From the NCBI GenBank assembly GCA_039818985.1, contig JBCBSU010000001.1, positions 832,367 to 896,366 on the forward strand: a DNA stretch of 64,000 nucleotides, written 5' to 3'. The first letter of the stretch is position 1, and the number at the start of each line of letters is the position of its first letter. Positions 12,776-40,486 of the stretch are shown here, piece by piece. The notes beneath the pieces were generated by a model that was given only the letters and a program-made list of their open reading frames with translations, was not told where the DNA came from and made no database searches. The stretch is from Pseudomonadota bacterium. Lineage in GTDB: Bacteria > Pseudomonadota > Alphaproteobacteria > Sphingomonadales > Sphingomonadaceae. The translations under genes and the position numbers were made by a program.

Positions 12776-12802
12776 TTGTCGCAAAAAGGTGAGGGGGACG
12801 CT

Positions 12803-13513
12803 ATGGGGTATGTGCTGGACAGAGGCGGGACACCACTCGATCATATAGCGATTGGCGTTCCTGATACCGAGCGTGGCGTCGAAGAGCTAGGCGAGGTCTT
12901 GGGCTATAAACCGGTCTTGACGAAGCCTGAGCCGGATCAGTTTTATTGGAGTGGATCGTTGCCTCTGGGCGCCGGTCGCTTTTTGGAGATACTTGGACCG
13001 AATCCGGAATACCGGAAATTCAATCCGTTTATCGAGATAGTGCGTCGGCTGGAGCAGCCACAGCCGCTTTTCTGGTATGTGGCAACTGATAATTTTGCGC
13101 GTTTTGAAGCTGCGGCCAAGGCAGCCGGCGCTCCGGTCGAGCGAGTACAGACCGTTTCCCACGAGGTCCATGGGACTATAACGGATTATACGCGCGGTAT
13201 TATCGGTCCAGGCTTTTTAAGCGTTAGCCCGAATGTCATCGAATGGCGATCACGTTTCGCGGCGCTAACCGAAGGGGATGGCCCCGAGTTTGTTAGCCTT
13301 GAGCTGGCACACCCTGAGGCAGATCGGCTTAATAGTGCGTTTAAGGTGTTGGGGATCAATCAGCATGTAAGTAAAGGTCCGCACCGTATCGGCCTAAATC
13401 TCAATACACCAAAAGGACCGGTATCTTTCGCTGGGGACGGTCTGGAGTTGCGAGGGGTCACCGCCATGGCCCGCATGGCGGGCCTGTATTTTCGATGGCT
13501 TGCTAAACGTTGA
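12803..13513 (+). CDS. Glyoxalase-like (VOC superfamily) protein
   Basis: I chose the ATG at 12803 because of a GGTGAGGGGGA ribosome-binding site; the reading frame extends to a TTG at 12776 directly after the previous stop. The product has 236 residues. It opens with LDHIAIGVPDTERGVEELGEVLGYKP, a VOC-type beta-alpha-beta module with a potential metal-binding His. A second half-module contains VSLELAHPEADRLNSAFKVLG. This matches the Glyoxalase_3-like domain. The reaction is unknown; VOC proteins include dioxygenases, isomerases and glyoxalases. It is the last gene before the right island boundary. Confidence 0.75.
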   Translation: MGYVLDRGGTPLDHIAIGVPDTERGVEELGEVLGYKPVLTKPEPDQFYWSGSLPLGAGRFLEILGPNPEYRKFNPFIEIVRRLEQPQPLFWYVATDNFARFEAAAKAAGAPVERVQTVSHEVHGTITDYTRGIIGPGFLSVSPNVIEWRSRFAALTEGDGPEFVSLELAHPEADRLNSAFKVLGINQHVSKGPHRIGLNLNTPKGPVSFAGDGLELRGVTAMARMAGLYFRWLAKR

Positions 13514-13654
13514 GTGGTGGCAGACGACTTATAATCCTCTGATAATTAGCAAAGCCCTGTTCATCTATCGTAGTAGCCAGCTAGCCGCTTAATAGTCAGA
13601 AGTTGTAGTTCGATAAGGCACCTACTAGTTGATCACCCATAAGTCATTGAAAAG

Positions 13655-13731
<77 letters not shown>

Positions 13732-13838
13732 TTATCCACTTGGCGTTCCCGTTTCGGGGCTACCGATTCGTCGGGCAGAGCGGCGTAAATAGGCATTTTT
13801 GCGCCGATGAAAAGGGTTTTCTTTAATGGCGGCCCAAA

Positions 13839-14960
13839 TTAGCTGAAAGTGCTGGTGCCCGGTCGCTGCCGGAGCTGGCGGTCTATGGCCATCAGCATGC
13901 CGATGCAGATCATCACCGTCATCATCGACGATCCGCCATGGCTGAGAAAGGGCAGGGGAATGCCGACCACCGGGGCCAGACCCATCACCATCATCATGTT
14001 GATCGCGGCATAGAGGAAGATGGTCATGGTGAGGCCGCCGGCGAGGAGCTTGGTGAAGCGGTTCGGCGCATTGAACGACAGCCGCCAGCCCCAGCGCAGC
14101 AGCAGGAAATAGGCGAAGATCACCGCCAGCCCGCCGATCAGGCCCCATTCCTCGGCCATGGTGGCGAAGACGAAATCGGTATGGCCCTCGGGCAGATAGT
14201 CGAGATGGCTTTGCGAACCCTGGAGGAAGCCCTTGCCGTCAATGCCGCCCGATCCGATGGCGATTTTCGACTGGGTGATGTGATAGCCCGAGCCCAGCGG
14301 GTCATTCTCCGGGTTGAGAAAAGTGCTTACCCGGCGCTGCTGATAGGGTTCGAGCAGGAACAGATAGGCCAGTGGAATGGCGACGGCAGCGGCGGCACTG
14401 GCACCGACGAACAGCCGCATCGGCAGGCCGGCGAGAAAAGCCACGGTGACCGCGCCGATACAGATGGTGAGGGTGGTGCCAAGATCAGGCTGGAGCAACA
14501 CCAGTGCGGCGGGAAGCCCCATCATCACCAGTAGCGGCCAGATCGCGGCCCAGCCGCGGATCATGCCGCGCGGCAGGGTGGCGTAAAAGCGCGCCGTCAC
14601 CAGCACAATCCCCGGTTTCATCAATTCGGACGGCTGGATGCGCATAAAGCCGAGCTCCAGCCAGCGCTGGCTGCCGCCCCTGACCTGGCCGAGAATTTCC
14701 ACCCCCAACAGCATCAGCAGCAATATGACATAGACCGGCAGCGCGGAAAATCGGAACAGGCTTTCGGGCATATAGCTGATGACCAGCGCCATGATGAGAA
14801 ACACGGTAAAGCGCGCGGCGTGAAGCCCGGCCCATGGACTGACAGAGCCGCCCGCAGCCGAATAGAGGATCGCGAAGCCAAAGCCGCTTAACACCACCAG
14901 CAACAGTATGATGCCCCAGGGCTGGGCCCGGATCGGCTGGGGAATGATCGAGATGTCCAT
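13839..14960 (-). CDS. rodA: Peptidoglycan glycosyltransferase RodA (SEDS family)
   Basis: The 373-residue polytopic protein has about ten membrane helices and the SEDS features expected of RodA. These include the QPDLGT segment, where the catalytic-site Asp lies, plus GSGGIDGKGFLQGSQSHLDYLPEGHTDF and the C-terminal PLPFLSHGGSS. RodA polymerises lipid II into glycan strands during cell elongation and works as a pair with the class B transpeptidase encoded immediately upstream (2 bases apart). It is the last gene of mreB-mreC-mreD-mrdA-rodA. Length and motifs are normal for the family. Confidence 0.95.
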   Translation of the reverse strand: MDISIIPQPIRAQPWGIILLLVVLSGFGFAILYSAAGGSVSPWAGLHAARFTVFLIMALVISYMPESLFRFSALPVYVILLLMLLGVEILGQVRGGSQRWLELGFMRIQPSELMKPGIVLVTARFYATLPRGMIRGWAAIWPLLVMMGLPAALVLLQPDLGTTLTICIGAVTVAFLAGLPMRLFVGASAAAAVAIPLAYLFLLEPYQQRRVSTFLNPENDPLGSGYHITQSKIAIGSGGIDGKGFLQGSQSHLDYLPEGHTDFVFATMAEEWGLIGGLAVIFAYFLLLRWGWRLSFNAPNRFTKLLAGGLTMTIFLYAAINMMMVMGLAPVVGIPLPFLSHGGSSMMTVMICIGMLMAIDRQLRQRPGTSTFS

Positions 14961-22149: not shown

Positions 22150-22620
22150 CTAATCCTCATCGCTGATCGGCGCCTCGGGATCGCGTACCGCGATCAGCCC
22201 GATGGATTTCATCCGCATCACCGGTTCGTCATTCTGGTTGAACACCGTCAGTTCGCCTTGCATGCTGCCCATTTCCGGGCGGCTGCGCGAGCGTCGTTTG
22301 GAAAGGGTCGTGCTCTCACAGCGCAGCATATCACCGGGATAGACCGGTTTGAGCCAGCGAATCTCGTCGACGCCGGGTGAGCCGAGCCCCGCCTGGCGGT
22401 TGACCTTCATATTTTCCACCATCATTCGCATCGCCATCGCGCATGTATGCCAGCCACTGGCCGATATCCGGCCGAAATGGGTCTTGGCCGCCGCCTCGTC
22501 ATCGAGATGAAAGGGCTGAGGATCATATTTCTGCGCAAATTCGAGGACTTCTTCGCGGGTGACCCGGTAATGGCCAAAACTGTGGCTTGCGCCGACTTCT
22601 ATGTCTTCGAAATGGATCAT
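22150..22620 (-). CDS. MaoC-like acyl dehydratase
   Basis: A 156-residue single hot-dog-fold domain. The (R)-hydratase signature is visible as YDPQPFHLDDEAAAKTHFGRISASGWHT, with catalytic Asp and His in the positions used by MaoC/PhaJ enzymes to hydrate or dehydrate acyl-CoA thioesters. Length is normal for a stand-alone MaoC protein. It is convergent with the lipoprotein gene, 9 bases apart, and about 50 bases downstream of the SbtB-like gene. The acyl substrate cannot be inferred. Confidence 0.88.
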   Translation of the reverse strand: MIHFEDIEVGASHSFGHYRVTREEVLEFAQKYDPQPFHLDDEAAAKTHFGRISASGWHTCAMAMRMMVENMKVNRQAGLGSPGVDEIRWLKPVYPGDMLRCESTTLSKRRSRSRPEMGSMQGELTVFNQNDEPVMRMKSIGLIAVRDPEAPISDED

Positions 22621-22670
22621 TGGCGGTTACTGCTCCATCATCATGCAAATAATGTTGGGGGGCGGCGAAG

Positions 22671-22979
22671 CTAAAAACGCTCGCCCCGGATTACCTCGAC
22701 ATCCCACATCGACAGAAGGAAGCCATATTTGGTCAGCATCGGGGCAATGGCCTCGGCAAGCGCCATCGCCCTGTCTTCCGCAGCTATTGTCAGAACGAAA
22801 ACCTTGTCGGTGCCCATGACCCGCTCCTCACGCCAATGGCCATCGCGCCCTTTGCCTTCGGTTACCGGGACAATAGTCCAGCCTGTGATCCCCGCCGCGT
22901 CAATGGCATCGGTGACGCGCTTCTGCAGTGCCTTGTCGGCGAGGATTTCAATCCGTTTGCGGATAACCGTTTCGATCAT
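22671..22979 (-). CDS. SbtB-like PII signalling protein
   Basis: A 102-residue product starting at the ATG at 22979, which overlaps the stop of the bicarbonate transporter gene by 4 bases. The pattern (IRKRIEILADKALQKRVTDAIDAAGITGWTIVPVTEGKG ... VFVLTIAAEDRAMALAEAIAPMLTKYGFLLSMWDVEVIRGERF) follows the ferredoxin-like PII fold. In cyanobacteria SbtB binds adenine nucleotides and inhibits the transporter SbtA. The C-terminal extension with a redox-sensitive Cys pair, present in some cyanobacterial SbtB proteins, is absent here. A longer open frame upstream is a shadow of the transporter gene. Confidence 0.8.
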   Translation of the reverse strand: MIETVIRKRIEILADKALQKRVTDAIDAAGITGWTIVPVTEGKGRDGHWREERVMGTDKVFVLTIAAEDRAMALAEAIAPMLTKYGFLLSMWDVEVIRGERF

Positions 22980-23968
22980 GGTCCGACAACTCCTGCGCCG
23001 CTGCTGAGATAGGCAGCAAATGCACTGATGACACCGATATTGATAAGTACGTTGAAGGGGAAGGTGATGCTCAGGGACATGGTCAGATAGATGCCGGGAT
23101 CGGCCTCTGGCAGGGCGAGACGCATGGCGGCGGGCACCGCGATATAGCTGGCGCTGGCGCAAAGAACGCCAAGTGCCGCCGCCGACCCTGTATCGAGACC
23201 GACACCGACACCAAGCGCAGTCCCGACCAGCCCGTTCACAATCGGCAGGAAGATCGCAATAGCGGTGAGACGCCAGGTGATGGCCCGGGAATCCATGATT
23301 CTGCGCGCCGCGATCAGGCCCATATCGAGCAGGAACAGGCACAATACGCCTTTGAAGCCGACTTCGAAAAACGGTTTGACCGCAGCAAAGCCGCTCTCGC
23401 CCGAAACCAGACCGATGGCAAAGGCACCGAGCAGCAGGACGATGGAGGAATTGGTGAGCACCTCATGCAGCATCTCGCCGGTGCTTTGTGCGCCGCCATC
23501 CTTGCTGCCCAGGCCGCGCGCCAGCAGCAGCCCGCTCAATATCGCCGGGGCTTCCATCGTCGCCATCACGGCGACCATATAGCCACCCGGCTCGCGTGCC
23601 TGTCCGGTGAGGATTTCCACTGCAGTGACAAAGGTCACCACGCTGATCGATCCATAATGCGCTGCGACTGCGCCCGAATTAATCCGGTCGAGCCTGCCGA
23701 AAGTCTTCAGCACCGCATAGGCGAAGAAGGGCAGCAGGAACCCGGCGGCTATGCCTGCGCCCAGCGCCGAGAGCACCGTTGCATCGAACCCCGATTTTGA
23801 AACCGCGACACCGCCTTTAATGCCGATAGCCGCCATCAGATAAAGCGACATCGCTTTGGCAATCGCTTCGGGAATGGCAAGATCAGAGCGCGCAAAGGCG
23901 GCCAGCAGTCCGAGCACGAAGAACAGGACAACCGGGGATGTGAAAGTCTGGATAGCGGTATCGAACAT
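22976..23968 (-). CDS. sbtA: SbtA-family sodium-dependent bicarbonate transporter
   Basis: The likely start is the ATG at 23968 (MFDTAIQTFTSPVVLFFVLG), giving 330 residues; the in-frame extension upstream is not membrane-like. About ten hydrophobic helices are visible in two repeats, with HYGSISVVTFVTAVEIL in the first half and small-residue-rich helices (AALGVLCASASYIAVPAAMRLALPEADP) in the second. This fits the SbtA/DUF897 family, which takes up bicarbonate with sodium. The downstream PII-like partner strengthens the call. In a heterotroph it may supply bicarbonate for carboxylases; that is inference. Confidence 0.85.
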   Translation of the reverse strand: MFDTAIQTFTSPVVLFFVLGLLAAFARSDLAIPEAIAKAMSLYLMAAIGIKGGVAVSKSGFDATVLSALGAGIAAGFLLPFFAYAVLKTFGRLDRINSGAVAAHYGSISVVTFVTAVEILTGQAREPGGYMVAVMATMEAPAILSGLLLARGLGSKDGGAQSTGEMLHEVLTNSSIVLLLGAFAIGLVSGESGFAAVKPFFEVGFKGVLCLFLLDMGLIAARRIMDSRAITWRLTAIAIFLPIVNGLVGTALGVGVGLDTGSAAALGVLCASASYIAVPAAMRLALPEADPGIYLTMSLSITFPFNVLINIGVISAFAAYLSSGAGVVGP

Positions 23969-24161
23969 CACGCGACCGGGTAGCGACCCGGCTGTTGCAT
24001 GTAAAGCGCGAGGCCGAGCGATTTCAATGGCTGTGCGATATGATCGCGTATTCACAGAATAGAGCGATATTGCCAGGTTATTCCGGCGCATTTCTTCATT
24101 GATTATAATATGAAATCTGTGTGATGATATTATAGTAAATTTTGCTGTTATAGGGGGCAAA

Positions 24162-27100
24162 ATGAGTTTTCATCAAGATAAACAGGCGATAATCCCAAGA
24201 TCGTTTGAATCTTCATCTAGGGAAATTCCACTAAGTCTTGAGCAACAGCTCGTCGATGCTGTTGAACGTGGACAAAAATTCAATCCTGACCATGAGTATC
24301 TGAGTTCATATCCTGATGATTACATCCGAGCGGATTTCATACGAAATTTGCTCCTCAACTTGGCAAAACAGCCTGGGCGCCCAAGTTTGGAGGATGTTGT
24401 ACTCACACCATTTGGTATTCATATTGGGGCAGCAAAGAAAATATCCGATGGCACCTGCATACCGCATGCCGACCCGACCAACTCTACTGAATGGTTGGCG
24501 GCGCCACGCGTCCCGATCAAAGGCTGCCTCGACCTGGCGCATCTGACTGCCGATGACGGAGCGCCGCTTCCGCCTCTTTTGCTGGAGTGGTGTGATTTCG
24601 AGCAGATCATTACGATGCGTGAGGCAAGGCTAAGTTCGGTCTCCTTCTATGGTTCGCGCTTTCCAGGCGTCTGCGTGCGCGACGCACACATTTCCGGTGA
24701 ACTCAATCTTAGTTTTTGCGGGCCGCCGCCCCATAAGATTGGCGGGCTGGAACAGTTGGAATATTTCCCATTTTCGGGACAGATTTTCGAGTTTTGTATA
24801 GACGAGAAAGAAAACAAGCGAATTGAAGATGAAGGAAAGTCGGATAAATCCACTGTCCCTGACTATTATATGTTCAAGGCGTTGGGTTCTTCTAACGAAA
24901 AGCAGAACGACCCATTGCCCCTGCCGCATATTCTACCAGAAAAATGTCAGATAAGCCCTTGTATATTAGACGCGCGAGCAGCAACGGTTCTGGGTTCGAT
25001 CCATATACAAAATTCCAATTTCTGCCGGAATCATGTCGAGAAGAACCCGTTTTCTCCGAGTGAGGGGAATATCAACTATGCGATAGAATTGTCCCACGCA
25101 CAGGTTCGGGATAGTATCGATTTTTCGCTGTCGGTTGTTCTCGGAGGAATCAATTTATCGTCAGCGGATATTGATGATGATATCTGGTTCAAATCCTCCC
25201 GAATATTTTGTGGCGGTGAGGATGCGGAATTTTCTTCAGATACCAGTGATAATGAGGTCGACCTCGGTCCCGCAATCAGGCTGCAACTCACAAAAATCGG
25301 TGGGCTGCTTGGAATTCGTAAAAATGAGAGTGGTGCAAAGCGCGAAGGCTTTGATCATACGCTTATCCGTGGCCCCATTCTCGGAATAGGAATACAGGCA
25401 CGGGAAATTTGGGTGGCTCGCGCTGTGCTTTGTCGAACATCGCGAGACGCGACTGCAATTTGGTGTCCAAAAGCAAATATAGAACAGAGCATTACCATTG
25501 GCGGGTATACAACTGAAGAATCCCATAACAGGGTTTTGGCCAACGGCGTTATCAGTTTTGAAAACGCATCGATAGGCAAGAATGTTGAGTTCCATCATGT
25601 CAGCTATGAACCAGCCAATCGCATCAGTCGTAGAGGTACGGACAAGCGCGGCGAATCGTTATTTTGCCCATGGTTTCTCAATCATGTTACACCGGACAAT
25701 CGCGATCTGCAGGCGACGGAAGGGGATTGCACCGCCCGCACTTTGAAAGATCTCGATGAAAAGTTGGTGGATCGGAAAAAACAGTACGCAGACGGCAAGG
25801 CACATCTTTACGGACTCGGGTTAACCGTTAGGGCGAAGGGCTTAAAGACCGGTCGTCGCTTTTACATTAGCTATTGTCATTTTGCAGCCTTGAACCTGCA
25901 GGCGGACAGGCCTCGAAAGCGTGCTGCCATCGACCTCTGGAAGTCAAGCCTGCACACCGGCTTCCGTATTGGTGAGCATAGCTATCTGGATGGCGCGCTG
26001 ATGCTGAATCGCTCAGAAATCAGCCGTGAGGTTTCAATAAAGTGCCGGCGGATCGAGACAGTTCGTCTAGCCAAAAACCCTTATTTGATATGCACCGCGA
26101 TCGATCTGAGTGGTGCACAGATCGATGGCGATATCAAGATCGGGACAAAATCCTCACGCTGGTCCTCTACAGACTTCAACTCAACCGTTAAAGGCGCAGT
26201 CATAATGGGGGGGATGAAAGTAAGCGGAGATCTACGCCTCAGCGGAATTGAGATCGACCTGGGTGCGTTTCAACGTCGAAGCAATAAAAAAGTTAGCCAG
26301 TCGGTAGAAAGCCTTCCTTCCACAGATCAACTCAATTCTGATAACGGAGCGATATTGCAAGGAGTCAGGATTGGTGAATCGGAACCCAAATTTGATCCTG
26401 CCGTTCTCGAGCTTGCTTCATGCAATATTCAGGGCGTGTTGCTGATCGACATCAAGCGCTGGACATTTCCCGCGAGTGATCAACCAAATACAAGCGAGGC
26501 TTATATTTGGTCTGAAATGCACCGCAATTTACAATTGGGCCGGCCTGTCAGTCACGCTGAACTCTCCTTTTACAAAAAAACCAAAATTGGCAAAATTGGC
26601 AAGGAAGATGATCCTATAAAATACGTAGAATATGATGAAAAATTTTATCCAATAACAGGAAAGTCTGCTCTCATTCATTCATTGAATGAACAAGCGGGTA
26701 ACCTGGATCTGAATACTGACAAAAAACGACGCGACTATTTATCCTTTTTTTGTGGCATTGTTGAGGGGCAGGGCGGACCTTTCTATATTGTGGACTGCAT
26801 CGATAAAGGCATTTTTGATGGCAAGAACCGCCCCAAGAAGCTGGAGTTGAAGCATGAGGAAATGCCGCCTGATATTCTGGAGAAGCTGAAACATGATACG
26901 GGCAAGCATCTCGATATCGACCGTTTGGCCTATATATTGGCATTCAAGCTCGGTGCGGGCGAGGCGGTCGCATTGGGAGATGGACTACTGAATGAATTGG
27001 AGGCGAAAGCATATTATGACGAGCTGCGGCCAATCGAGGAAAAAGCTGACGCAGCGTCGGGATATGAAAATGGTCCAGACGATCAAGACACCACCACCGA

Positions 27101-29033
27101 TGAAATTACCATCTCTTCAGATAATCAAGGCACAAATTCCGACGAAGTATCAGATAGCTTAAATGGGTGGAAATACACAGGCATAGTTCATTATGCAGAC
27201 GCTCTGTTTCTTGCTAATTTCCACCTTTATCCGGACGGAAAGATCGAGATGGTCGAAGATTCCGCGATTGCAGCGGGCCTTGATGAGGTCAAAAATACCA
27301 AAAAGATATTCGGATTCAGGGAAGCGCGAGTTCATCATGCGAGTTACGTAAATAGCTATACGGACAGTAGCCTGACCGTTCCGAAACTCCGCCAGCAAAT
27401 ATCGACATTGGTTGATACTTATTCAACATTGATTTCCGGGATCCGTGATAAAATCCCGAGCGAGAAAGATAAGGCGGCACGAAAGTATTTACAGGAAAGG
27501 GAGCGCGTAGTTACTGCTAATCTAGACCTTTTTAAAAATTCAAAGTTTGGAACTATATCTACTGAGATAAATATATATATCAGGGCTAAGGAATATATAT
27601 GTGGCATTTTTCACAGTTGCCGGAATGCGGTATCAAAGAGATATGAGTATTTGATTGCCACTATTATTCCCAACCGCGGTGATGCAGATTATCTGGTGGA
27701 TTTATCCAGCATGTCCTGTGCTTACCTGAAGGACAATAATGGACTAGGTTGGCGGTTTCAGCCCGGCTTGCGTCTGAAGGCGGCTGGCTTGTCCTGTGGC
27801 CGCGTCGAGGCAACTGGAGAAAACCCTGGGAGCAATTCCTTGAGTGCGAGCTTCATATGGGAAAATGCAGGAGACAACGGTAGTAACACTGATCGGTACG
27901 GAACGAGTAATGGCACCAGTTTGGGCGGTGCTGGAAAAAAACGTCGAGAATGGTTGGCCTATCAATATAGCCCCAAACCCGTTTTAAGGGAAAAATCGTT
28001 TTCCCGATTCATCAACCCGATAGCCCGTATGACCCATGTCAGCCGTGACCAATTCGTCCCCTATGCCTATAATATGTTTGCAGCGGCACACCAGCGCGCA
28101 GGGGAAAATGAAGAAGCCCAGGAGTTGTTGCTGGAACGGAAAAATATTGAGAACACTTTGGCGTTTAAAGACTTTTCAGCCAAACGCTCCCCATGGTTGA
28201 GGACAATGCTGACGCGAATATTCCTTAGGCCCGTCAAGGAAGAGCAAGGTTTTTCGATCATACGGACGGAATGGTTTGGCGTCCGTTTCCCTTTTCTCAG
28301 CCTGGCCTCGCTGTTCTGGTTGGCGATATCATCATTTGCTTTCTATGCGATAGGGTGGCGTCAATTCGGAGTTGAATGGCTTAACCGTTATACTCCCTGG
28401 GAACTTGCCGCTTCGAATTGGCAGATAATGATCTTCACCTTGCTCGGCCTGATTCTGATCTATCATTTCTTTGCCGTTTTCTTTGGCGTCGGAGCCTATA
28501 TATTCCGTTATGGATTCCGATATGCCTTGTCACCCTCTCGTGGTTTGGCCACTTTCGGCTTTTTCCTCTTGATAGGGGCTTTTTGTGTTCATGGTTTGCG
28601 CACTGGAGATTTCTGGTCCTATGACACGGATTGGCAGGCACTGACGCACGAGGTCTCCGGCCAGAACGGTATGACAAGGCTCGACCAAGATGTTGTTCTG
28701 GTATTGGACGTTCACTACGAACCCCAAATTGGTGATGATACCGGTATAAATGATGACGTGCGACAAATTGGCGCCGCGGGTATTGCTGCTGCGTCACCGT
28801 GCAACCTTGGCGTTAACAGCCTTTTGTACGCGGCCGATGTGTTTATCCCTTTACTTGATCTGGATCAACGGAAGAGATGTCGTATCAGGGACGTAGAAGA
28901 CAGCGATCAGCCAGACCCCTATCTGCATTGGCGATTCTTCAAAGCGCTGTATGAGTTAATGGGCTGGGTCATCACATCACTTCTGATTCTGACATTCTCA
29001 GGGGTGATGCAGAGAGATCTGCAGAAGCACTGA
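24162..29033 (+). CDS. Very large predicted beta-helix protein with C-terminal membrane helices
   Basis: A 1623-residue product; the ATG follows a strong AGGGGG site. Residues ~115-870 contain many degenerate repeats of the kind I-x-G-x-I-x-L-x-x-A-x-I, e.g. IDLSGAQIDGDIKIG, GMKVSGDLRLSGIEIDL and NASIGKNVEFHHV, as expected for a right-handed beta-helix. Residues ~1076-1130 look helical. The C-terminal part has an Ala/Glu helical repeat (PYAYNMFAAAHQRAGENEEAQ) and four membrane helices (~1377-1397, 1420-1448, 1460-1478, 1598-1617). This layout matches a family sometimes labelled membrane-associated oxidoreductase, but no catalytic or cofactor motif is visible. DNA is clearly AT-richer than both neighbours, suggesting transfer. 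Function unknown. Confidence 0.8.
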   Translation: MSFHQDKQAIIPRSFESSSREIPLSLEQQLVDAVERGQKFNPDHEYLSSYPDDYIRADFIRNLLLNLAKQPGRPSLEDVVLTPFGIHIGAAKKISDGTCIPHADPTNSTEWLAAPRVPIKGCLDLAHLTADDGAPLPPLLLEWCDFEQIITMREARLSSVSFYGSRFPGVCVRDAHISGELNLSFCGPPPHKIGGLEQLEYFPFSGQIFEFCIDEKENKRIEDEGKSDKSTVPDYYMFKALGSSNEKQNDPLPLPHILPEKCQISPCILDARAATVLGSIHIQNSNFCRNHVEKNPFSPSEGNINYAIELSHAQVRDSIDFSLSVVLGGINLSSADIDDDIWFKSSRIFCGGEDAEFSSDTSDNEVDLGPAIRLQLTKIGGLLGIRKNESGAKREGFDHTLIRGPILGIGIQAREIWVARAVLCRTSRDATAIWCPKANIEQSITIGGYTTEESHNRVLANGVISFENASIGKNVEFHHVSYEPANRISRRGTDKRGESLFCPWFLNHVTPDNRDLQATEGDCTARTLKDLDEKLVDRKKQYADGKAHLYGLGLTVRAKGLKTGRRFYISYCHFAALNLQADRPRKRAAIDLWKSSLHTGFRIGEHSYLDGALMLNRSEISREVSIKCRRIETVRLAKNPYLICTAIDLSGAQIDGDIKIGTKSSRWSSTDFNSTVKGAVIMGGMKVSGDLRLSGIEIDLGAFQRRSNKKVSQSVESLPSTDQLNSDNGAILQGVRIGESEPKFDPAVLELASCNIQGVLLIDIKRWTFPASDQPNTSEAYIWSEMHRNLQLGRPVSHAELSFYKKTKIGKIGKEDDPIKYVEYDEKFYPITGKSALIHSLNEQAGNLDLNTDKKRRDYLSFFCGIVEGQGGPFYIVDCIDKGIFDGKNRPKKLELKHEEMPPDILEKLKHDTGKHLDIDRLAYILAFKLGAGEAVALGDGLLNELEAKAYYDELRPIEEKADAASGYENGPDDQDTTTDEITISSDNQGTNSDEVSDSLNGWKYTGIVHYADALFLANFHLYPDGKIEMVEDSAIAAGLDEVKNTKKIFGFREARVHHASYVNSYTDSSLTVPKLRQQISTLVDTYSTLISGIRDKIPSEKDKAARKYLQERERVVTANLDLFKNSKFGTISTEINIYIRAKEYICGIFHSCRNAVSKRYEYLIATIIPNRGDADYLVDLSSMSCAYLKDNNGLGWRFQPGLRLKAAGLSCGRVEATGENPGSNSLSASFIWENAGDNGSNTDRYGTSNGTSLGGAGKKRREWLAYQYSPKPVLREKSFSRFINPIARMTHVSRDQFVPYAYNMFAAAHQRAGENEEAQELLLERKNIENTLAFKDFSAKRSPWLRTMLTRIFLRPVKEEQGFSIIRTEWFGVRFPFLSLASLFWLAISSFAFYAIGWRQFGVEWLNRYTPWELAASNWQIMIFTLLGLILIYHFFAVFFGVGAYIFRYGFRYALSPSRGLATFGFFLLIGAFCVHGLRTGDFWSYDTDWQALTHEVSGQNGMTRLDQDVVLVLDVHYEPQIGDDTGINDDVRQIGAAGIAAASPCNLGVNSLLYAADVFIPLLDLDQRKRCRIRDVEDSDQPDPYLHWRFFKALYELMGWVITSLLILTFSGVMQRDLQKH

Positions 29034-29067
29034 AGCGAAAGTCGTCAAACCATCTTCATTGTGCATA

Positions 29068-29156
29068 AATGTGCGCTGCTTTTGCCGCCCAGCGCGATGT
29101 AATCATCATAGGCACCGGGCCCCGGCGCGGATGAAGTCGCACCGAGGTCGCCTGCA
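29068..29156 (-). pseudogene. Decayed fragment of a ychF 3' region
   Basis: On the minus strand this stretch encodes, with a frameshift, FIRA followed by AYDDYIALGGKSSAH. The intact YchF 1.3 kb away has FIRAETIAYDDYVALGGESGAREAG at the corresponding place. DNA similarity runs over about 90 bases with small gaps. The fragment sits between the giant gene and the OmpA gene and is not part of either. It looks like the relic of a duplicated or displaced ychF end. Confidence 0.65.
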
Positions 29157-29164
29157 ATCCGGGC

Positions 29165-30067
29165 TTAAAGGCCGTCGACGCTCTTGCTGACAAGCACATT
29201 GACCGCAACGCGGCGATTTTGCGCCTTGCCTTCGATGGTGTCGTTGCTTGCTGCCGGATCGGCTTCGGCCATGCCAGTCGGTGTCAGCATGCGATAGGGC
29301 TTCCAGCCACAGGCCTGCTGCAGATAGTTGACGACACGGCTGGCGCGCTTTTCGCTGAGCTGCTGGTTGAATTCCTGGCTTCCGGTTGAATCGGTATAGC
29401 CGACAACCAGCATCAGGGCGTTATCGGTTGCCTCGGCTTCGCTGGCGGTGGCGCACAGCTCGGCCTTGTCCTGCGCGGACAGCACGGCCCTGCCGGTATC
29501 GAAATAGACATTTGTCGTCCGCTTGATGTTGTATTTGTCGATATCGCCGACCCGACCGCGCAGGGCTTCGGTGGCCGCTGCATTCTGGTCGATGGCGGCG
29601 CCCTGTTGCGCAAATTGCTGTTCGGTGCCGCTGCGTATCATTGATGCCGTCTTCAGATCCTTGTTGCGGAACCTGATGCGGCTGGCGACGAGGCCACCGC
29701 CCCATTCCACGGTCCTGACTGTCACCGGCAGGCCGTTGAGCAGCGAATCCGCGGCAAGCTTGTCGCGACCAAGGCCCAGGAAACCGCCCGTGCCGCGAAT
29801 TTCGGTTCCGTCGCTGATGCGGATCTGCTCGTCCGCGCCATCTTCTCTTGTTACCAGCAGCATGTCGCCATTTCGTGCCGAAATAAGGCCTTCGATTTCG
29901 GGCCCTTCAGTCAGTTCGCTGAGGTCGGCAGGCGGTGTACCGAATACCGTGGTTTGAGATGCGCTCCCCGGCATGTCCTGCTGCTGTGCGGACAGGGCAT
30001 GGGGCGCTGCCATGGCAAGCGCTGTGACCAGCAACAGACCTGCCGGCCGTTTGGAGATGACACTCAT
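29165..30067 (-). CDS. OmpA-family peptidoglycan-associated outer-membrane protein
   Basis: A 300-residue protein with a cleavable signal peptide (ending near ALSAQ). The N-terminal ~110 residues form a small beta-rich domain (GLISARNGDMLLVTREDG ... VTVRTVEWGGGLVASRIRFRN). A helical linker follows, and the C-terminal OmpA domain (residues ~185-295) contains NVYFDTGRAVLSAQDKAEL, GYTDSTGSQEFNQQLSEKRA and NRRVAV. These include the Asp and Arg that bind diaminopimelate of peptidoglycan. There is no N-terminal eight-strand OmpA barrel. It probably tethers the envelope to the wall. Confidence 0.9.
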   Translation of the reverse strand: MSVISKRPAGLLLVTALAMAAPHALSAQQQDMPGSASQTTVFGTPPADLSELTEGPEIEGLISARNGDMLLVTREDGADEQIRISDGTEIRGTGGFLGLGRDKLAADSLLNGLPVTVRTVEWGGGLVASRIRFRNKDLKTASMIRSGTEQQFAQQGAAIDQNAAATEALRGRVGDIDKYNIKRTTNVYFDTGRAVLSAQDKAELCATASEAEATDNALMLVVGYTDSTGSQEFNQQLSEKRASRVVNYLQQACGWKPYRMLTPTGMAEADPAASNDTIEGKAQNRRVAVNVLVSKSVDGL

Positions 30068-30313
30068 TATACTGCTCCTTCAAACTGTTCGGGCCAGTCG
30101 CGCCAAGGCACGTCCGGCAGCTCAGTCCCCTGCATTTTTATGGAAAATTGTGCGATTATTATCGCGCTCGCACCCCACTGGACACCCAATGTTACGGTGA
30201 CGCTTTCTCGCAGGTGAATGGCTGTTGCAGAATCGCCAGCAGCCCGGATGGTTTGAGAGCAGTGTGCGGCGAACCGTTTCCGGCTCGGTCAAAGCCTTCT
30301 TGCAGGCAAGCCG

Positions 30314-31414
30314 TCAGACATTGAACTTGAACAGCATGACATCGCCGTCCTGCACCACATAGTCCTTGCCTTCCTGGCGCAGCTTGCCCGCTTCACGCGC
30401 TCCGCTTTCGCCGCCCAGTGCGACATAATCGTCATAGGCGATGGTCTCGGCGCGGATGAAACCACGTTCGAAGTCGCTGTGTATCTCGCCTGCAGCCTGC
30501 GGCGCTTTGGCGTCACGTTCGACGGTCCATGCCCGCGCCTCATTCGGCCCGGCAGTGAAGAAGGTTTGCAGGTTCAACAGGTCATAGCCGGCGCGGATGA
30601 CGCGGGTGAGGCCGGTCTCGCTGAGCCCCATTTCCTCGAGGAACATCTGCTTTTCCTCGGCCTCCATGGCGACCAGTTCGGACTCGATGGCAGCCGATAC
30701 GACCACCGCTTCGGCGCCCTCGGACTTCGCTTTCTCAAATACTGTGGCGCTGTAATCATTGCCGTTGGCGGCGCTGTCTTCATCGACATTGCAGACATAG
30801 AGCACCGGCTTGGATGTCAGCAGTTGCGCCTGTGCCAGATGCTTCTCCTCCTCGGCATCGGCGGGTTCGGTCAGGCGCGCCGGTTTGCCCTCGCGCAGCA
30901 GGTCGAGCGCTTTGGCCAGCACCGAGGCGGCGATCTTCGCCTCCTTGTCCTGGCCGGTGGCGCGCTTCTGCAGATTGGGGACGCGCTTTTCCAGGCTCTC
31001 CAGATCGGCGAGCAGCAATTCGGTCTCCACCACTTCGGCATCGGAGATCGGGTCGACGCGGTTGTCGACATGCTGGATATCGTCATCGTCGAAACAGCGC
31101 AGCACATGGACGATGGCGTCAACTTCGCGTATGTTGGCGAGGAACTGGTTGCCCAGACCTTCCCCCTTGCTTGCCCCCTTTACCAGCCCGGCAATGTCGA
31201 CAAAGGTCAGCTGGGTCGCGATGACCTTCTTGCTCTCGGCAATCGCCGCAATCTTGTCGAGCCGGTCATCGGGTACCGCGACGACGCCCTCATTCGGCTC
31301 GATAGTGCAAAAGGGATAGTTGGCCGCCTGTGCCGCTTGTGTTTCGGTCAGTGCATTGAACAGCGTCGACTTGCCGACATTCGGCAGGCCGACAATACCG
31401 CATTTGAAACCCAT
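30314..31414 (-). CDS. ychF: Redox-regulated ATPase/GTPase YchF (Obg family)
   Basis: The 366-residue protein opens with MGFKCGIVGLPNVGKSTLFNALT, the P-loop. Switch and G3 elements follow (DIAGLVKGASKGEGLGNQFL). The G4 position is NVDE (VLYVCNVDE) rather than NKxD, which explains ATP preference in this family. A coiled-coil insertion (about 130-200) and a C-terminal TGS domain (FTAGPNEARAWT ... DYVVQDGDVMLFKFNV) complete it. YchF binds ribosomes and is linked to stress responses and translation fidelity. Length is normal. A fragment of its TGS region is duplicated at 29068-29156. Confidence 0.97.
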   Translation of the reverse strand: MGFKCGIVGLPNVGKSTLFNALTETQAAQAANYPFCTIEPNEGVVAVPDDRLDKIAAIAESKKVIATQLTFVDIAGLVKGASKGEGLGNQFLANIREVDAIVHVLRCFDDDDIQHVDNRVDPISDAEVVETELLLADLESLEKRVPNLQKRATGQDKEAKIAASVLAKALDLLREGKPARLTEPADAEEEKHLAQAQLLTSKPVLYVCNVDEDSAANGNDYSATVFEKAKSEGAEAVVVSAAIESELVAMEAEEKQMFLEEMGLSETGLTRVIRAGYDLLNLQTFFTAGPNEARAWTVERDAKAPQAAGEIHSDFERGFIRAETIAYDDYVALGGESGAREAGKLRQEGKDYVVQDGDVMLFKFNV

Positions 31415-36557: not shown

Positions 36558-37376
36558 CTAGCGGTGCGCCGCCATCTGGTTGCTGATCATCAGCAACTGA
36601 CCGTCAGCCGACCATGCATCGACGCGCTGATCGTAAAAGCCATTGGCGATGCTGCTGCTGTCCGCGCGCAACATTATCGGTTTCGCACCGGCGGCGGCAA
36701 TCTGTTCAGGGGTTGCGACAACATGGTTCTGCATCTGGATCGTCGAGCCCATGCGCAACTGGCTGTCGACGAAGAAGGTTCGGGGCATGGGAGCATCGAC
36801 CATCGCGATCAGCCCCGGCAGGTCGAGCGGGCGTTCGTCCCTGTCTTGGATCCACAGCCAGCTCTCCGGGCGCGGGTTGACCCTGAAGGGCGTTCCCCGG
36901 GCGAGCCATTGGCGATATTGCCCCATCCACAAGGGTGTCAATGGCGGGGCAGGTTCGAGAGGTTGTGACTCTTCAGCAGGAGCGGCCTCAGGCATCGCGA
37001 TCTGCACCTCCGGTCCGCTCTTGCGGGGGAGGCCGAAGACGAGCTGGGCCGAGACCATGAGAGCGTCATTCTGCATCATGTCGACGCGCCAGAAATCGGT
37101 GGCCCTGCGGCTGACGAGAAGACGGGCTTTGATGGTGACATCGCCCTCGGCGAGACCGCCCATGAAACTGGTCTGCATTGTCTGCAGCGTCCCGCGAGAA
37201 TCGGAATGGCTGGCTATGGCGCGGTAAGCCAGTGCATTGATCCAGCCGCCAAAGGCCGCTTTGGGTGTGTTGCAGTAATCGGTGGTGACCCCGGCGCGCC
37301 AATGGCTTGTGCTATCGTCCAGCGCCTGCAGCTGAAGCGCTCTGTCCAGCGCGAATTCGGTCCTGTCTGCGGTCAC
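36558..37376 (-). CDS. Acyl-CoA thioesterase-like protein (double hot-dog)
   Basis: The 272-residue product starts at a GTG that shares its first base with the stop of the upstream TraB gene (TAGTG), so start and coupling are clear. Two hot-dog halves are visible: residues ~20-115 (NTPKAAFGGWINALAYRAI ... TSFMGGLAEGDVTIKARLL) and ~150-270 (SWLWIQDRDERPLDLPGLIAMVDAPMP shown by landmarks SWLWIQDRD and LIAMVDA). This is the TesB-like/thioesterase-like superfamily layout. It presumably hydrolyses acyl-CoA; chain length and pathway are not evident. Confidence 0.8.
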   Translation of the reverse strand: MTADRTEFALDRALQLQALDDSTSHWRAGVTTDYCNTPKAAFGGWINALAYRAIASHSDSRGTLQTMQTSFMGGLAEGDVTIKARLLVSRRATDFWRVDMMQNDALMVSAQLVFGLPRKSGPEVQIAMPEAAPAEESQPLEPAPPLTPLWMGQYRQWLARGTPFRVNPRPESWLWIQDRDERPLDLPGLIAMVDAPMPRTFFVDSQLRMGSTIQMQNHVVATPEQIAAAGAKPIMLRADSSSIANGFYDQRVDAWSADGQLLMISNQMAAHR

Positions 37377-38287
37377 TATTGCACCCTTTCTATGGCAAAA
37401 CCTTCGGCCACCAGCATCGCCTGTACGCTGTCCTGTCCGGCAAGATGCGCGGCGCCGACGGCAACAAAGGGGCGTTTGCCGTCATCGACGAGACCGCTGA
37501 TCTCGGCAATCCAGGCGCGGTTGCGCTGGACCAGCAGCGCATTGCGCACCGGTTCGGTGGCCAGCAGTCCCGATTTCGTCGTTTCAGCCAGTGATGCCAC
37601 ATCACCGTTGAGCCAGTTGGTCAGAAGGGTGCGATAGCTGTTGCGTGCCGTTGCCGCATCGGCGATCACCGCCTCGAGCATTTTCAGCTGCTGTGCTTCG
37701 GTCAACCGATCGAAATAACCGAATTGCTCGGCGGCGCTTTCCAGGGCGATGATAGGCATGTTGCGCTTATAGGCATATTGCGACAGCACTGCCTCGACAC
37801 CATAGGTCCGGCTGACGCCGAGGCCACTGGTGGCTATGCCTGCCAGTGACAGCGCCGCGGCCCAGCTTTCGCGGCCGGTAAAGGCATTGTCGGGCAGGCT
37901 GGCGGTTTCGGCCAGTGCTGCATATTCATCCTGCCACTGGTCATCAATGCGCTGACTGACAGGGGGAATGCCGGGGGTGGCGCCCATTGCCCTGAAGGTG
38001 TCCGGCACCGGCTGGGGCTCCTGAGACGGATCGATTTCCAGCGCCAGGGTCTTACTGGCGTCGAGCGCTGCGATGATGGCATCATCATACCAGTGCAAAC
38101 GGTCCGGCAGGGCGTGGACGGCACCAAAAAGATAGCCGCTCTGGCCATCGCGGCTGATCCGCCACAGCGCTGGGCGGTGCTCGCTTGGCATATCGGTCCA
38201 GTCGCGGGTGACCGAACTCTCGCGCTCACATGCAGCGAGCAACGGCCCAAGCAAGGCGAGGCAAAGGGCGGTAACAAGAACGCGCAT
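37376..38287 (-). CDS. TraB/GumN family lipoprotein 1
   Basis: A 303-residue protein with a lipobox signal (ALLGPLLAAC). The family landmarks are present: WRISRDGQSGYLFGAVHALP with the GxxH motif, the acidic LEIDPSQE, and near the end VAVGAAHLAGQDSVQ. TraB/GumN/PrgY/TIKI proteins are proposed metal-dependent peptidases that use the GxxH His and conserved Glu residues; the activity is shown for animal TIKI and is inferred here. It is coupled to the thioesterase gene. Two paralogues follow on the same strand (38367 and 40487), all predicted outside the cytoplasm. Confidence 0.85.
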   Translation of the reverse strand: MRVLVTALCLALLGPLLAACERESSVTRDWTDMPSEHRPALWRISRDGQSGYLFGAVHALPDRLHWYDDAIIAALDASKTLALEIDPSQEPQPVPDTFRAMGATPGIPPVSQRIDDQWQDEYAALAETASLPDNAFTGRESWAAALSLAGIATSGLGVSRTYGVEAVLSQYAYKRNMPIIALESAAEQFGYFDRLTEAQQLKMLEAVIADAATARNSYRTLLTNWLNGDVASLAETTKSGLLATEPVRNALLVQRNRAWIAEISGLVDDGKRPFVAVGAAHLAGQDSVQAMLVAEGFAIERVQ

Positions 38288-38366
38288 GGCGACGCCTTAG
38301 CCGAGCGTTGTGCCTATGGGAATGCTGCACTGCCCCGATGGTGGCCTGCCGGGTGCTGCGCGGTCA

Positions 38367-39308
38367 TCAATATTCGACACGCCGTGTCGTGATATTCAGC
38401 CGGGCAAGCTGTTGCTGTACGCTTTTGTCGCCGGCGAGATGGCCGGCTCCCACCGCAATGAACACCGTTCCGGGCGTATCGAGCCGGGTCTTGATCCAGC
38501 CGGCCCAGTCGATGTTGCGGTTGGTGAGCATTGTGTCATAGAGCAGCGGATCGGCGAATCCGGCATGCATGATCGCAGCCAGCGCATCAATATCAGCATC
38601 GCCCCAGCTGGTGATCATGGCATCGCTCTGCTCGGCGACACTGTCAACGCCGGCGGCGGTGCTGATCAGATAGTTGATCTGGGTTTTCTCGGGCAGGTTA
38701 TCGAGAAAGCCGATTTGCTGTTCGGCGCTTTCCAGTTCGACCAGCGTCTTTCCATCGGCCTTGGCCTGGGTGATCAGCACCTTTTCGACGCCGCTATTGA
38801 GGTCATAGCCTGCCTGAACCAGTGGCAGCACGCCAAGATTGATTGCAGCGAACCAGGGTTCCATCCTGTCAAATGCTGCGACCGGCATGCCAATGGCGGT
38901 CATGGCACGGTCAAAGGTGGCTTTTTCTGTCTCGTCCAGCTTGCCGCGCAGCGGATTGTTGAAGTCGATGGCCCTGCTGGTGATAATTTCCTGCATCTTG
39001 GCAGGGTCAGGCTCGATCATTTCGAGCACAAGTTCATCCGAGGCATCAAATGCATCGCGTACTGCCTCGTCGAACCAGCTCAGTTTCGGCCTCAGCAGGT
39101 GCAGCGTACCGAAAAGGTAAATGGTGGTGTCTTCATCCTGTACTATCCACAGAGCCGGATCGACATCGGTCATATCCGTGGCTTCCGGTGTGGCTTGGGC
39201 TGACTCCTGCTCGGCAAGTGCAGGAGCGGGGGTGGCAAATGCGGCGCCGATACTGGTCATAACCAGGCCAAGTGTCGGGATGGAGCGGGTAAAAAAGCTG
39301 ATGTTCAC
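38367..39308 (-). CDS. TraB/GumN family secreted protein 2
   Basis: I chose the GTG at 39308 because AAGGAA lies 6 bases upstream; an alternative TTG lies at 39323. The product has 313 residues with a cleavable signal peptide ending near ALAEQ. Landmarks are LWIVQDEDTTIYLFGTLHLLRP (GxxH), LVLEMIEPD, VELESAEQQIGFLDNL and the C-terminal IAVGAGHLAGDKSVQ. It is a close paralogue in design of the genes on either side, but soluble and periplasmic rather than lipidated. A putative metallopeptidase; substrate unknown. Confidence 0.85.
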   Translation of the reverse strand: MNISFFTRSIPTLGLVMTSIGAAFATPAPALAEQESAQATPEATDMTDVDPALWIVQDEDTTIYLFGTLHLLRPKLSWFDEAVRDAFDASDELVLEMIEPDPAKMQEIITSRAIDFNNPLRGKLDETEKATFDRAMTAIGMPVAAFDRMEPWFAAINLGVLPLVQAGYDLNSGVEKVLITQAKADGKTLVELESAEQQIGFLDNLPEKTQINYLISTAAGVDSVAEQSDAMITSWGDADIDALAAIMHAGFADPLLYDTMLTNRNIDWAGWIKTRLDTPGTVFIAVGAGHLAGDKSVQQQLARLNITTRRVEY

Positions 39309-39439
39309 GCGAATTTCCTTCAATGGGTGGGGAATGGGGATAAAATCTTGCCATTGCCTTAAACTGGGCTGCGTTAAATCCGGTGAGGCACCCTATGGAA
39401 GGGAAAGGATGAACCGGACATGGGCGGTGGTGTCATAGA

Positions 39440-39643
39440 TTATCCGGGTTGAACGCCGTCATCGAAAATTTCTTCTATTGCCTGGCCAAACAGCCGCGCA
39501 ATGCGAAAAGCGAGTGGTAGTGACGGATCATATTTGCCGGTCTCGATAGCGTTGACCGCCTGTCGAGAGACATCGAGATGCTGGGCCAGCTCTGCCTGAC
39601 TCCAGTTGCGCTCGGCGCGCAAGACCTTGAGCCGGTTCTTCAT
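39440..39643 (-). CDS. Small XRE-family transcriptional regulator
   Basis: A 67-residue protein that is nothing but a helix-turn-helix domain (MKNRLKVLRAERNWSQAELA, QLDVSRQAVNAIETGKYDPSL in essence, with SRQAVNAIE as recognition helix). It resembles the small regulators paired with membrane proteins in many genomes. It starts 2 bases after the stop of the membrane-protein gene, so it is the third gene of that operon. The inverted and direct TGACA/CATGACT motifs at 40311-40377 near the operon promoter are the likely target for autoregulation. Confidence 0.9.
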   Translation of the reverse strand: MKNRLKVLRAERNWSQAELAQHLDVSRQAVNAIETGKYDPSLPLAFRIARLFGQAIEEIFDDGVQPG

Positions 39644-39645
39644 CG

Positions 39646-40095
39646 CTACAGGCCTTTCACGCGCAGGGTGAACCAGGCCGATGAGAAACCGATCATCAGC
39701 AGTGCGATGATATCATTCCCCATGGGTACCGGTATGCCCGGCCCGAATTTCGCCAGCAACATCCAAGCAGCATGGCTGAACAATATAGTGGGCAAAGTCG
39801 CCAGCGCCGCCGTCGCCATAAGCTGAAAGGCATAATCCTCGCTGCAGCGCCGGTCGATGCCGGTGCCGATGGAGAAAATAACCGCGAAAATGGCAATCAC
39901 CGGGATCAGTATCGCAGCGGCGATGACAGGTTGCACGGCTTCGGCATTGGCAGCTATCCGCTCCACATCGGGGGTATCGCCCAGATCGGAGATCAGGCTG
40001 ACTATACCGATCACCATCAGCAACACGAACATCACATTGAGGTTGCGGAAGGTATATTTGCTGTTCCAGAAGCCGTTTCGGCCTTGTGTAGACAT
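39646..40095 (-). CDS. Four-helix membrane protein of the XRE operon
   Basis: The ATG at 40095 is preferred over 40101 because the AGGGG site then has 8-base spacing. The product has 149 residues and four hydrophobic helices (about 20-38, 55-80, 92-113 and 120-140). The short loop DRRCSEDYAFQL lies between helices two and three. Family not recognised with certainty; the pairing of a small membrane protein with a single-domain XRE regulator recalls DUF2178-like modules. It is second in an operon with the 53-residue protein upstream and the regulator downstream. Confidence 0.7.
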   Translation of the reverse strand: MSTQGRNGFWNSKYTFRNLNVMFVLLMVIGIVSLISDLGDTPDVERIAANAEAVQPVIAAAILIPVIAIFAVIFSIGTGIDRRCSEDYAFQLMATAALATLPTILFSHAAWMLLAKFGPGIPVPMGNDIIALLMIGFSSAWFTLRVKGL

Positions 40096-40124
40096 TATCA
40101 TTTCCCCTGTAGCGTGGTTATGGT

Positions 40125-40286
40125 TCAGGCGACCATGGTGGCAAAGAGCTGGAGCGTTTCCAGCCCGCGGTCATACCAGCCGATCAGACCTTCATTAGCC
40201 TTCTTCATCAGCGCCAGACCGATAATTGCTCCGGCACCGAGCCACACGGTGTTGCGATTGGACGGCGACAGTTTACAGCATTGCAT
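40125..40286 (-). CDS. Small protein (53 residues) heading the XRE operon
   Basis: The open frame starts at an ATG (complement at 40284-40286) preceded by GGGAGA and ends TGA at 40125. The translation begins MQCCKLSPSNRNTVWLGAG, has one hydrophobic segment (TVWLGAGAIIGLALMKK), and then NEGLIGWYDRGLETLQLFATMVA. It is 29 bases upstream of the membrane-protein gene and shares its promoter. The CC pair near the N-terminus and one membrane-spanning segment suggest a small membrane peptide. Family unknown. Confidence 0.6.
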   Translation of the reverse strand: MQCCKLSPSNRNTVWLGAGAIIGLALMKKANEGLIGWYDRGLETLQLFATMVA

Positions 40287-40310
40287 GGTGTTTCTCCCAG
40301 TCATCAGTCC

Positions 40311-40377
40311 CTGACACGATGTCAGGTTTCCATGACTATATGCCGATGATTCTGATCGATGTCAAGTAAGCATGACT
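40311..40377 (-). promoter_or_regulatory. Promoter and probable operator of the XRE operon
   Basis: On the minus strand a TTGACA box (40360-40365) and a TATAGT box (40335-40340) are 19 bases apart. Just downstream lies the dyad ctgaca-cga-tgtcag (40311-40325). The heptamer catgact occurs twice in direct orientation at 40331-40337 and 40371-40377, overlapping the promoter. Repeated TGACA-type half-sites around a promoter of an operon ending in an XRE gene suggest autoregulation. Confidence 0.5.
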
Positions 40378-40486
40378 TTTGGTAATGGAGAGATGTCTTT
40401 ATGGCATGGGTAGATGTCATAAAGTGATGATTTGTAGACATTTTGGGGGATGCGCAAACGTCTGCGCGTTGCCGTGCGATGCGGGC

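What the first reader, a model, noticed from the sequence alone, without database searches (positions are those of the whole stretch)
24162..29033. 1623-residue beta-helix/membrane protein on an AT-rich block
Seen: one uninterrupted gene of 4.9 kb, many I-x-G-x-I-x-L type coils, four C-terminal membrane helices, no catalytic motif, AT-rich compared with both sides, ychF relic at its right end. Known: similar proteins are listed as membrane-associated oxidoreductases without support. Inference: a horizontally acquired envelope or defence-related protein of unknown action.
Basis: partly seen in the sequence, partly recalled or inferred. Interest (0 to 1): 0.65.

Follow-up and report, generated by a model that had tools for sequence, protein, structure and literature searches.

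The report
Giant membrane-anchored beta-solenoid accessory protein
A sphingomonad-type bacterium carries a very large, horizontally acquired protein made of a long beta-solenoid inside the cell joined to membrane helices; it belongs to a scattered, undescribed family found in Proteobacteria, Actinobacteria and Cyanobacteria whose membrane end looks somewhat like a channel, but whose function is untested.

Summary
An intact 1623-codon gene at 24162-29033 (+), GC 47.7% against 60% on both sides, encodes a predicted beta-solenoid (residues about 84-770), an inserted domain (820-1037), a helical hairpin and four membrane helices. It lies in a 7.7-kb block (22621-30313) absent between the same two genes in both congeners; a decayed ychF fragment lies at 29073-29135. 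Relatives are sporadic (9 of 398 genomes of the family) and not core. The family extends to Actinobacteria and Cyanobacteria; Streptomyces members are indeed labelled 'membrane-associated oxidoreductase'. All share a C-terminal hairpin with the loop signature YxxDxxxPxx[DNS][LF]xQ between two membrane helices; Pfam has no model for it. The model resembles a two-helix pore module (TRPC5/TRPM, Z 5.5-6.3), but profile comparison with K+ channels is not above controls. Defence neighbours occur only beside distant relatives; the nearest relatives stand alone among housekeeping genes, and an 800-aa branch sits in RiPP-type clusters. Most likely a solenoid-gated membrane pore or effector (inferred, about 0.35). 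Horizontal acquisition is well supported; 'defence' for this gene is not.

The parts
24162..29033 (+). 1623-aa beta-solenoid/membrane protein gene
   Evidence: uninterrupted ORF, ATG, AGGGGG upstream; GC 47.7% vs 60% flanks
24411..26471 (+). beta-solenoid, about residues 84-770, with low-confidence inserts (193-262, 484-551, 701-747)
   Evidence: AlphaFold2 model m370076033b16, pTM 0.74; VIA-align against right-handed beta-helices Z up to 19.4, rmsd 4.5, 322 aligned; HetL Z 15.2, rmsd 3.2, 232 of 237
26619..27272 (+). inserted domain, residues 820-1037, also found as a stand-alone protein of about 230 aa
   Evidence: alignment A7; stand-alone copies in G236 and G102, E 8e-30 and 2e-16; no Pfam model
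28053..28151 (+). helical hairpin (residues 1298-1330), 'PYxxxAxAxxRAGExxxAxxLLxERK' type, present throughout the family
   Evidence: alignment of family members
28296..28352 (+). membrane helix 1 (residues 1379-1397), long branch only
   Evidence: hydropathy, predicted helix
28425..28481 (+). membrane helix 2 (residues 1422-1440), long branch only
   Evidence: hydropathy, predicted helix
28542..28598 (+). membrane helix 3 (residues 1461-1479), shared by the family; preceded by the 'YGxxPxRA'-type motif
   Evidence: hydropathy, alignment
28800..28880 (+). loop with Cys1547, signature YAADVFIPLLDLDQ and Cys1573; modelled as a short helix then extended loop between the last two membrane helices
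   Evidence: A6 invariant columns; both Cys in 19, neither in 18, one alone in 0 of 37 sequences; model
28956..29012 (+). membrane helix 4 (residues 1599-1617), 'GWVITSLLILTFSGVMQRD', shared by the family
   Evidence: hydropathy, alignment
29073..29135 (-). decayed fragment of ychF
   Evidence: 80% over 65 bp to intact ychF
22621..30313 (.). block absent from both congeners between the maoC-like gene and ychF; holds an SbtA-like permease gene, the large gene, the ychF fragment and an OmpA-type gene
   Evidence: G001: the two flanking genes lie about 20 bp apart; in G002 they are neighbours too

Best explanation
This is a single-gene, horizontally acquired member of a widespread but undescribed family: a long cytosolic beta-solenoid, coupled through a conserved helical hairpin to a C-terminal membrane hairpin. 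Shown here: the gene, its absence from congeners, the predicted solenoid, the membrane helices, the conserved loop signature and the paired cysteines. Inferred: the solenoid (with its inserted domain) binds a cytosolic ligand or partner and oligomerises; the C-terminal hairpin, with its loop dipping back towards the membrane on the periplasmic side and clamped by a disulfide (or marked by a Trp in other branches), forms an ion-conducting or leaky pore; ligand binding to the solenoid opens it. It would act as a stress or conflict effector that changes membrane permeability.
For: Family-wide constancy of the order solenoid - hairpin - membrane helix - YxxDxxxPxx[DNS][LF]xQ loop - membrane helix, in three phyla. 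The loop and last helix are the best conserved part of the chain. The model places a short helix plus extended loop between the last two membrane helices, and the rows that fit residues 1454-1620 with a low rmsd are all cation-channel pore modules: TRPC5 Z 6.3, rmsd 3.7, 100 aligned; TRPM2 Z 5.7, rmsd 4.0, 99 aligned; TRPM3 Z 5.5, rmsd 3.9, 101 aligned. The loop is acidic (21 D+E, 10 K+R; acidic in 33 of 36 relatives) and carries a cysteine pair that is both-or-neither in 37 sequences, which fits a periplasmic loop; the TM2-TM3 connection is positively charged, which fits cytosolic N and C termini. Mobile distribution.
Against: Profile-profile comparison of the C-terminal region with 26 Ion_trans_2 channels scores 13.9, no better than the reversed control (14.5) or the best column shuffles (15.0). 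No channel among PDB sequence matches. No selectivity-filter motif TxGYGD. The C-terminal model is of low overall confidence (pLDDT 56, pTM 0.40), Foldseek itself gives no significant match, and Z near 6 can be a common helix arrangement. The Cys pair is nearly confined to one clade, so its both-or-neither pattern may be a single event. No oligomer was modelled.
Confidence: 0.35

Rival explanations
1. Membrane-anchored scaffold: the solenoid is a passive platform that organises other proteins at the inner membrane, in the manner of the cyanobacterial pentapeptide membrane protein HglK; the membrane hairpin is only an anchor.
For: Large repeat surface without a catalytic family match; protein length varies strongly between relatives (about 490 to 1623 aa) while the membrane part is kept; precedent HglK, four membrane spans plus 36 pentapeptide repeats (PMC8145042).
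Against: A mere anchor would not be expected to be the most conserved part: the loop signature and last helix have 40-51% mean identity against 14-33% elsewhere. Sporadic distribution is unusual for a cell-architecture scaffold.
Confidence: 0.3
2. Self-immunity, export or target-linked membrane protein of RiPP (ribosomal peptide) clusters, from which the solitary long forms derive.
For: An 800-aa branch lies beside precursor-like small ORFs and GrrM/OscB-like radical SAM maturases (L049 395 bits, above the 310 cut-off; L018/L054 254 bits, below it), 2OG-Fe oxygenase, GMC oxidoreductase and sulfotransferase genes; one relative (L052) lies beside a LanL/LanKC-like lanthionine synthetase.
Against: The window gene, L039, L041, L044, L046, L047, L051 and L053 have no RiPP genes nearby; the RiPP-linked branch is only one of several.
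Confidence: 0.15
3. Anti-phage defence effector.
For: Distant relatives beside AbiEi/AbiEii and SIR2 (Rhodococcus pLP337) and overlapping by 4 bp with a CU044_2847-family gene next to a caspase gene (Acaryochloris pMB04); SIR2 gene within 6 kb in a Streptomyces plasmid.
Against: No PADLOC match for the protein and no coherent defence system next to 11 nearer relatives; no phage or viral contig carries a relative, and the window's own neighbours are mutL, a maoC-like gene, an ompA-type gene and ychF.
Confidence: 0.12
4. Membrane-associated oxidoreductase, as some databases label relatives.
For: Label in Streptomyces records; two conserved cysteines in this clade.
Against: No cofactor-binding or oxidoreductase family match; the cysteines are absent from the Streptomyces, Rhodobacteraceae-like and cyanobacterial members, including one that carries the label.
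Confidence: 0.03

Closest known systems
Streptomyces proteins annotated 'membrane-associated oxidoreductase' / 'oxidoreductase' (for example WP_331764204.1)
   Same: Same order of parts: degenerate pentapeptide-like solenoid, 'YEQLAxxYRRVGDxxEARxVxLAK' hairpin, 'YGFRPLRA' membrane helix, YALDLLLPIIDFGQ loop, last membrane helix.
   Different: About 490 aa against 1623; no inserted domain, no two extra membrane helices, no Cys pair.
Pentapeptide repeat proteins (HetL, QnrB, EfsQnr; PF00805/PF13576)
   Same: Right-handed beta-helix in the model; HetL aligned over 232 of 237 residues, Z 15.2, rmsd 3.2; PF13576 match at cut-off.
   Different: Only five contiguous repeats at best against the eight that define the superfamily (PMC8145042); higher Z to other beta-helices such as PfbA; has membrane and inserted domains.
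HglK (cyanobacterial pentapeptide membrane protein)
   Same: Beta-solenoid plus four membrane spans.
   Different: HglK has its membrane spans first and 36 regular repeats after them (PMC8145042); no sequence comparison was run.
Cation channel pore modules (TRPC5, TRPM2, TRPM3; Ion_trans_2)
   Same: Helix - short loop helix - helix arrangement, Z 5.5-6.3 over about 100 residues.
   Different: No sequence relationship above controls, no known filter motif.

Membership tests
[quoted passage not shown]
   longest contiguous run is 5 (residues 155-179); shuffles give mean 2.9, maximum 7; definition from PMC8145042
Pentapeptide repeat protein superfamily | right-handed beta-helix | tested here: met
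   AlphaFold2 model and VIA-align matches, HetL Z 15.2, rmsd 3.2, 232 aligned; a prediction, not a structure
Pentapeptide repeat protein superfamily | regular quadrilateral coil of four pentapeptides (20 residues) | tested here: inconclusive
   strand spacing in the model is mixed, often 22-23; periodicity of hydrophobic residues at lag 5 z = 2.9, at lag 20 none
Ion_trans_2 / VGIC-type channels | detectable sequence-profile relationship | tested here: not met
   hhalign score 13.9 vs reversed control 14.5; no Pfam channel match at E 10
Ion_trans_2 / VGIC-type channels | helix - pore helix - filter - helix fold | tested here: inconclusive
   TRPC5/TRPM2/TRPM3 Z 5.5-6.3, rmsd 3.7-4.0, about 100 aligned, model of low overall confidence
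Ion_trans_2 / VGIC-type channels | ion conduction | not testable with these tools
   needs electrophysiology or flux assays
Known anti-phage defence systems (PADLOC-DB 2.0.0) | match of the protein to a defence model | tested here: not met
   0 families at E 10
Known anti-phage defence systems (PADLOC-DB 2.0.0) | recurrent defence neighbours of near relatives | tested here: not met
   82 neighbours of 11 relatives give scattered generic matches, no coherent system; housekeeping domains dominate
Oxidoreductase (database label) | cofactor-binding or oxidoreductase domain | tested here: not met
   no such family in Pfam or NCBIfam
Unnamed solenoid-membrane family described here | YxxDxxxPxx[DNS][LF]xQ loop between the last two membrane helices, preceded by the conserved helical hairpin | tested here: met
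   alignments A1, A6, A9 and the 37-sequence comparison

The most novel reading that the evidence does not exclude
The C-terminal hairpin with its YxxDxxxPxx[DNS][LF]xQ loop is a new class of two-helix membrane pore, gated by a giant cytosolic beta-solenoid, carried as a mobile conflict module in three phyla and recruited by RiPP clusters and defence-type loci.
Probability: 0.2. Interest if true: 0.75.

Novelty: new variant of a known kind. Interest (0 to 1): 0.45.

Why it matters
The family is spread over at least three phyla, carries an unsupported oxidoreductase label in public records, and its most conserved part has no Pfam model. If the C-terminal hairpin is a pore, it would be a new channel architecture with an unusually large cytosolic solenoid as sensor; if it is only an anchor, the family still gets a clear definition and a wrong annotation goes. 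The link of one branch to radical-SAM RiPP clusters gives a directly testable setting.

Tried and rejected
Sequence searches of Pfam, NCBIfam, PADLOC, PHROGs and PDB with the whole protein gave only Pentapeptide_3. Plasmid and phage tblastn with the whole protein: no match; viral contigs: 52 pattern hits, none confirmed. A seven-row alignment was too divergent to search with; five rows worked. Own-genome paralogues: none. Homology to K+ channels by hhalign: first run spoiled by wrongly oriented loci, repeated correctly, not above controls. Foldseek with both models: no match at E 0.001. The Hsp70-lid matches of the C-terminal model cover only a helical stretch (model 433-530) and were set aside; the KCNQ and PKD2 rows have rmsd 14-20 and were not counted. 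The 2026 'Knotted Solenoid' fold was considered and rejected: 100-160-aa Brevundimonas proteins (PMC13123833). An att-type origin of the ychF repeat was considered; the repeat is internal to ychF and decayed, and no integrase gene was noticed among the window's ORFs, so it is left open. Small-ORF and neighbour calls were made with a simple ORF finder, so some neighbours may be spurious.

Full report
1. The observation. The open reading frame 24162-29033 (+) is intact, 1623 aa, ATG start with an AGGGGG run just upstream. Its GC content is 47.7% (GC3 49.1%) against 59.9% and 60.4% in the 5 kb left and right. Only Pentapeptide_3 (PF13576) matches, at its cut-off of 27 bits.

2. How it got there. 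In the congener G001 the maoC-like gene (window 22150-22620) and ychF (window 30314-31414) lie about 20 bp apart, and DNA similarity breaks off at window 22620 and resumes at 30316; in G002 the same two genes are neighbours. So 22621-30313 was inserted or moved in. The block holds an SbtA-like permease gene (orthologue, 94%, elsewhere in G001), the large gene, the ychF fragment at 29073-29135 (80% over 65 bp) and an OmpA-type gene that is single-copy in the genome and lies elsewhere in relatives. The large gene itself is absent from both congeners and found in 9 of 398 genomes of the family by protein search, in 9 of 96 genera, or in 13 of 299 by profile; across the phylum in 9 of 398. No paralogue was found in the own genome.

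3. Relatives. The search for related loci gave 17 loci in Alpha-, Beta- and Gammaproteobacteria. A tree of the C-terminal part joins the window protein with L041 (Sphingorhabdus MAG, 1492 aa; support 0.96) and with L039/L040 (0.99), i.e. a branch of 1400-1620-aa proteins where complete. Shorter members of about 490-950 aa occur in other genomes of the class and, on plasmids, in Rhizobium, Shinella, Roseomonas, Streptomyces, Nonomuraea, Rhodococcus and Acaryochloris.

4. Anatomy. Residues 84-770 are predicted as a right-handed beta-solenoid (pTM 0.74) that aligns with PfbA (Z 19.4, rmsd 4.5, 322 residues), phage tailspikes and HetL (Z 15.2, rmsd 3.2, 232 residues). It is not a canonical pentapeptide repeat protein: the longest contiguous run is five repeats, the definition asks for eight (PMC8145042). 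Residues 820-1037 form an inserted domain shared with other long members; it also exists as a stand-alone protein of about 230 aa in two genomes of the family. It has no Pfam model. Residues 1298-1330 form a helical hairpin present throughout the family. Then follow membrane helices at 1379-1397, 1422-1440, 1461-1479 and 1599-1617; the first two are peculiar to long members, the last two are shared. The loop between them carries the signature Y-x-x-D-x-x-x-P-x-x-[DNS]-[LF]-x-Q.

5. Topology. There is no signal peptide, the TM2-TM3 connection has three basic and no acidic residues, and the TM3-TM4 loop has 21 acidic and 10 basic residues. Two cysteines in that loop (1547 and 1573) are both present in 19 and both absent in 18 of 37 relatives, never one alone; where absent, the second site is Trp in 17 and Phe in 1. 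This fits a disulfide in the periplasm. The caution is that the Cys-bearing sequences group together in the tree, so the pattern may be one evolutionary event.

6. Mechanism. The model of residues 640-1623 is weak overall (pLDDT 56, pTM 0.40), but its last two membrane helices score about 75-90, with a short helix and an extended stretch between them. Among Foldseek's candidates, VIA-align fits this part to the pore modules of TRPC5, TRPM2 and TRPM3 (Z 5.5-6.3, rmsd 3.7-4.0, about 100 residues). The KCNQ and PKD2 rows have rmsd of 14-20 and do not count. Against this, profile comparison with 26 Ion_trans_2 sequences from related genomes is no better than a reversed control, and PDB profile searches return no channel. 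I therefore hold a solenoid-gated pore as the most likely single mechanism, at 0.35, and a scaffold with a plain anchor at 0.3. Every step from ligand binding to opening is inferred.

7. Context. The nearest relatives of the long type stand alone among housekeeping genes: L039 next to uvrA and near valS, L041 near a nucleoside transporter gene, L044 next to dnaK. A PADLOC scan of 82 neighbours of 11 relatives shows only scattered generic matches. An 800-aa branch and some others lie in RiPP-type clusters: L049 with a GrrM/OscB radical SAM (395 bits, cut-off 310) and a YhhC-like 2OG oxygenase, L018/L054, L019 and L055 with a GrrM-like radical SAM (254 bits in L018, below cut-off; the others by sequence likeness), L052 with a LanL/LanKC-like synthetase; a 64-codon ORF directly upstream of the L049 radical SAM gene and a 41-codon ORF shared by L018 and L055 look like precursors. 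Defence-type neighbours occur only beside distant plasmid-borne relatives: AbiEi/AbiEii and SIR2 in Rhodococcus pLP337, and a CU044_2847-family gene overlapping by 4 bp plus a caspase gene in Acaryochloris pMB04. From my own knowledge CU044_2847 corresponds to Trypco1; Trypco domains in conflict systems: PMC7159879.

8. Verdict. Literature searches found no paper on the family, within a library that lacks most subscription journals.

Noticed in passing
L049:6545-7917, L055:4042-5491, L018:10538-11987, L052:10520-15533: RiPP-type clusters beside short relatives: GrrM/OscB-like radical SAM genes with candidate precursor ORFs (64 and 41 codons), 2OG-Fe oxygenase, GMC oxidoreductase, sulfotransferase, and a LanL/LanKC-like lanthionine synthetase.
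   Followed up: partly
L018:13873-15056: Phage-type integrase parts in two adjacent ORFs next to the RiPP-type cluster of Altericroceibacterium: the cluster looks mobile.
   Followed up: no
L023:6992-7720 (-) and L147:6791-7603 (+): Stand-alone copies of the inserted domain; the first lies directly before a VirD4/TraG-like gene (by eye).
   Followed up: partly
29165-30067: OmpA-type gene that is single-copy here but lies elsewhere in the relatives checked; its 3' end abuts a decayed ychF fragment, which points to a local rearrangement.
   Followed up: partly
1-14000: GC mostly 51-58%, lower than the 60% further right, with three TonB-receptor-like genes and a PepSY-like gene (by eye), ending at tRNA-Lys 13656-13731; may be a genomic island.
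   Followed up: no
37376-41629: Three TraB/GumN-like genes close together (37376-38287, 38367-39323, 40487-41629; by eye), two of them similar to each other.
   Followed up: no
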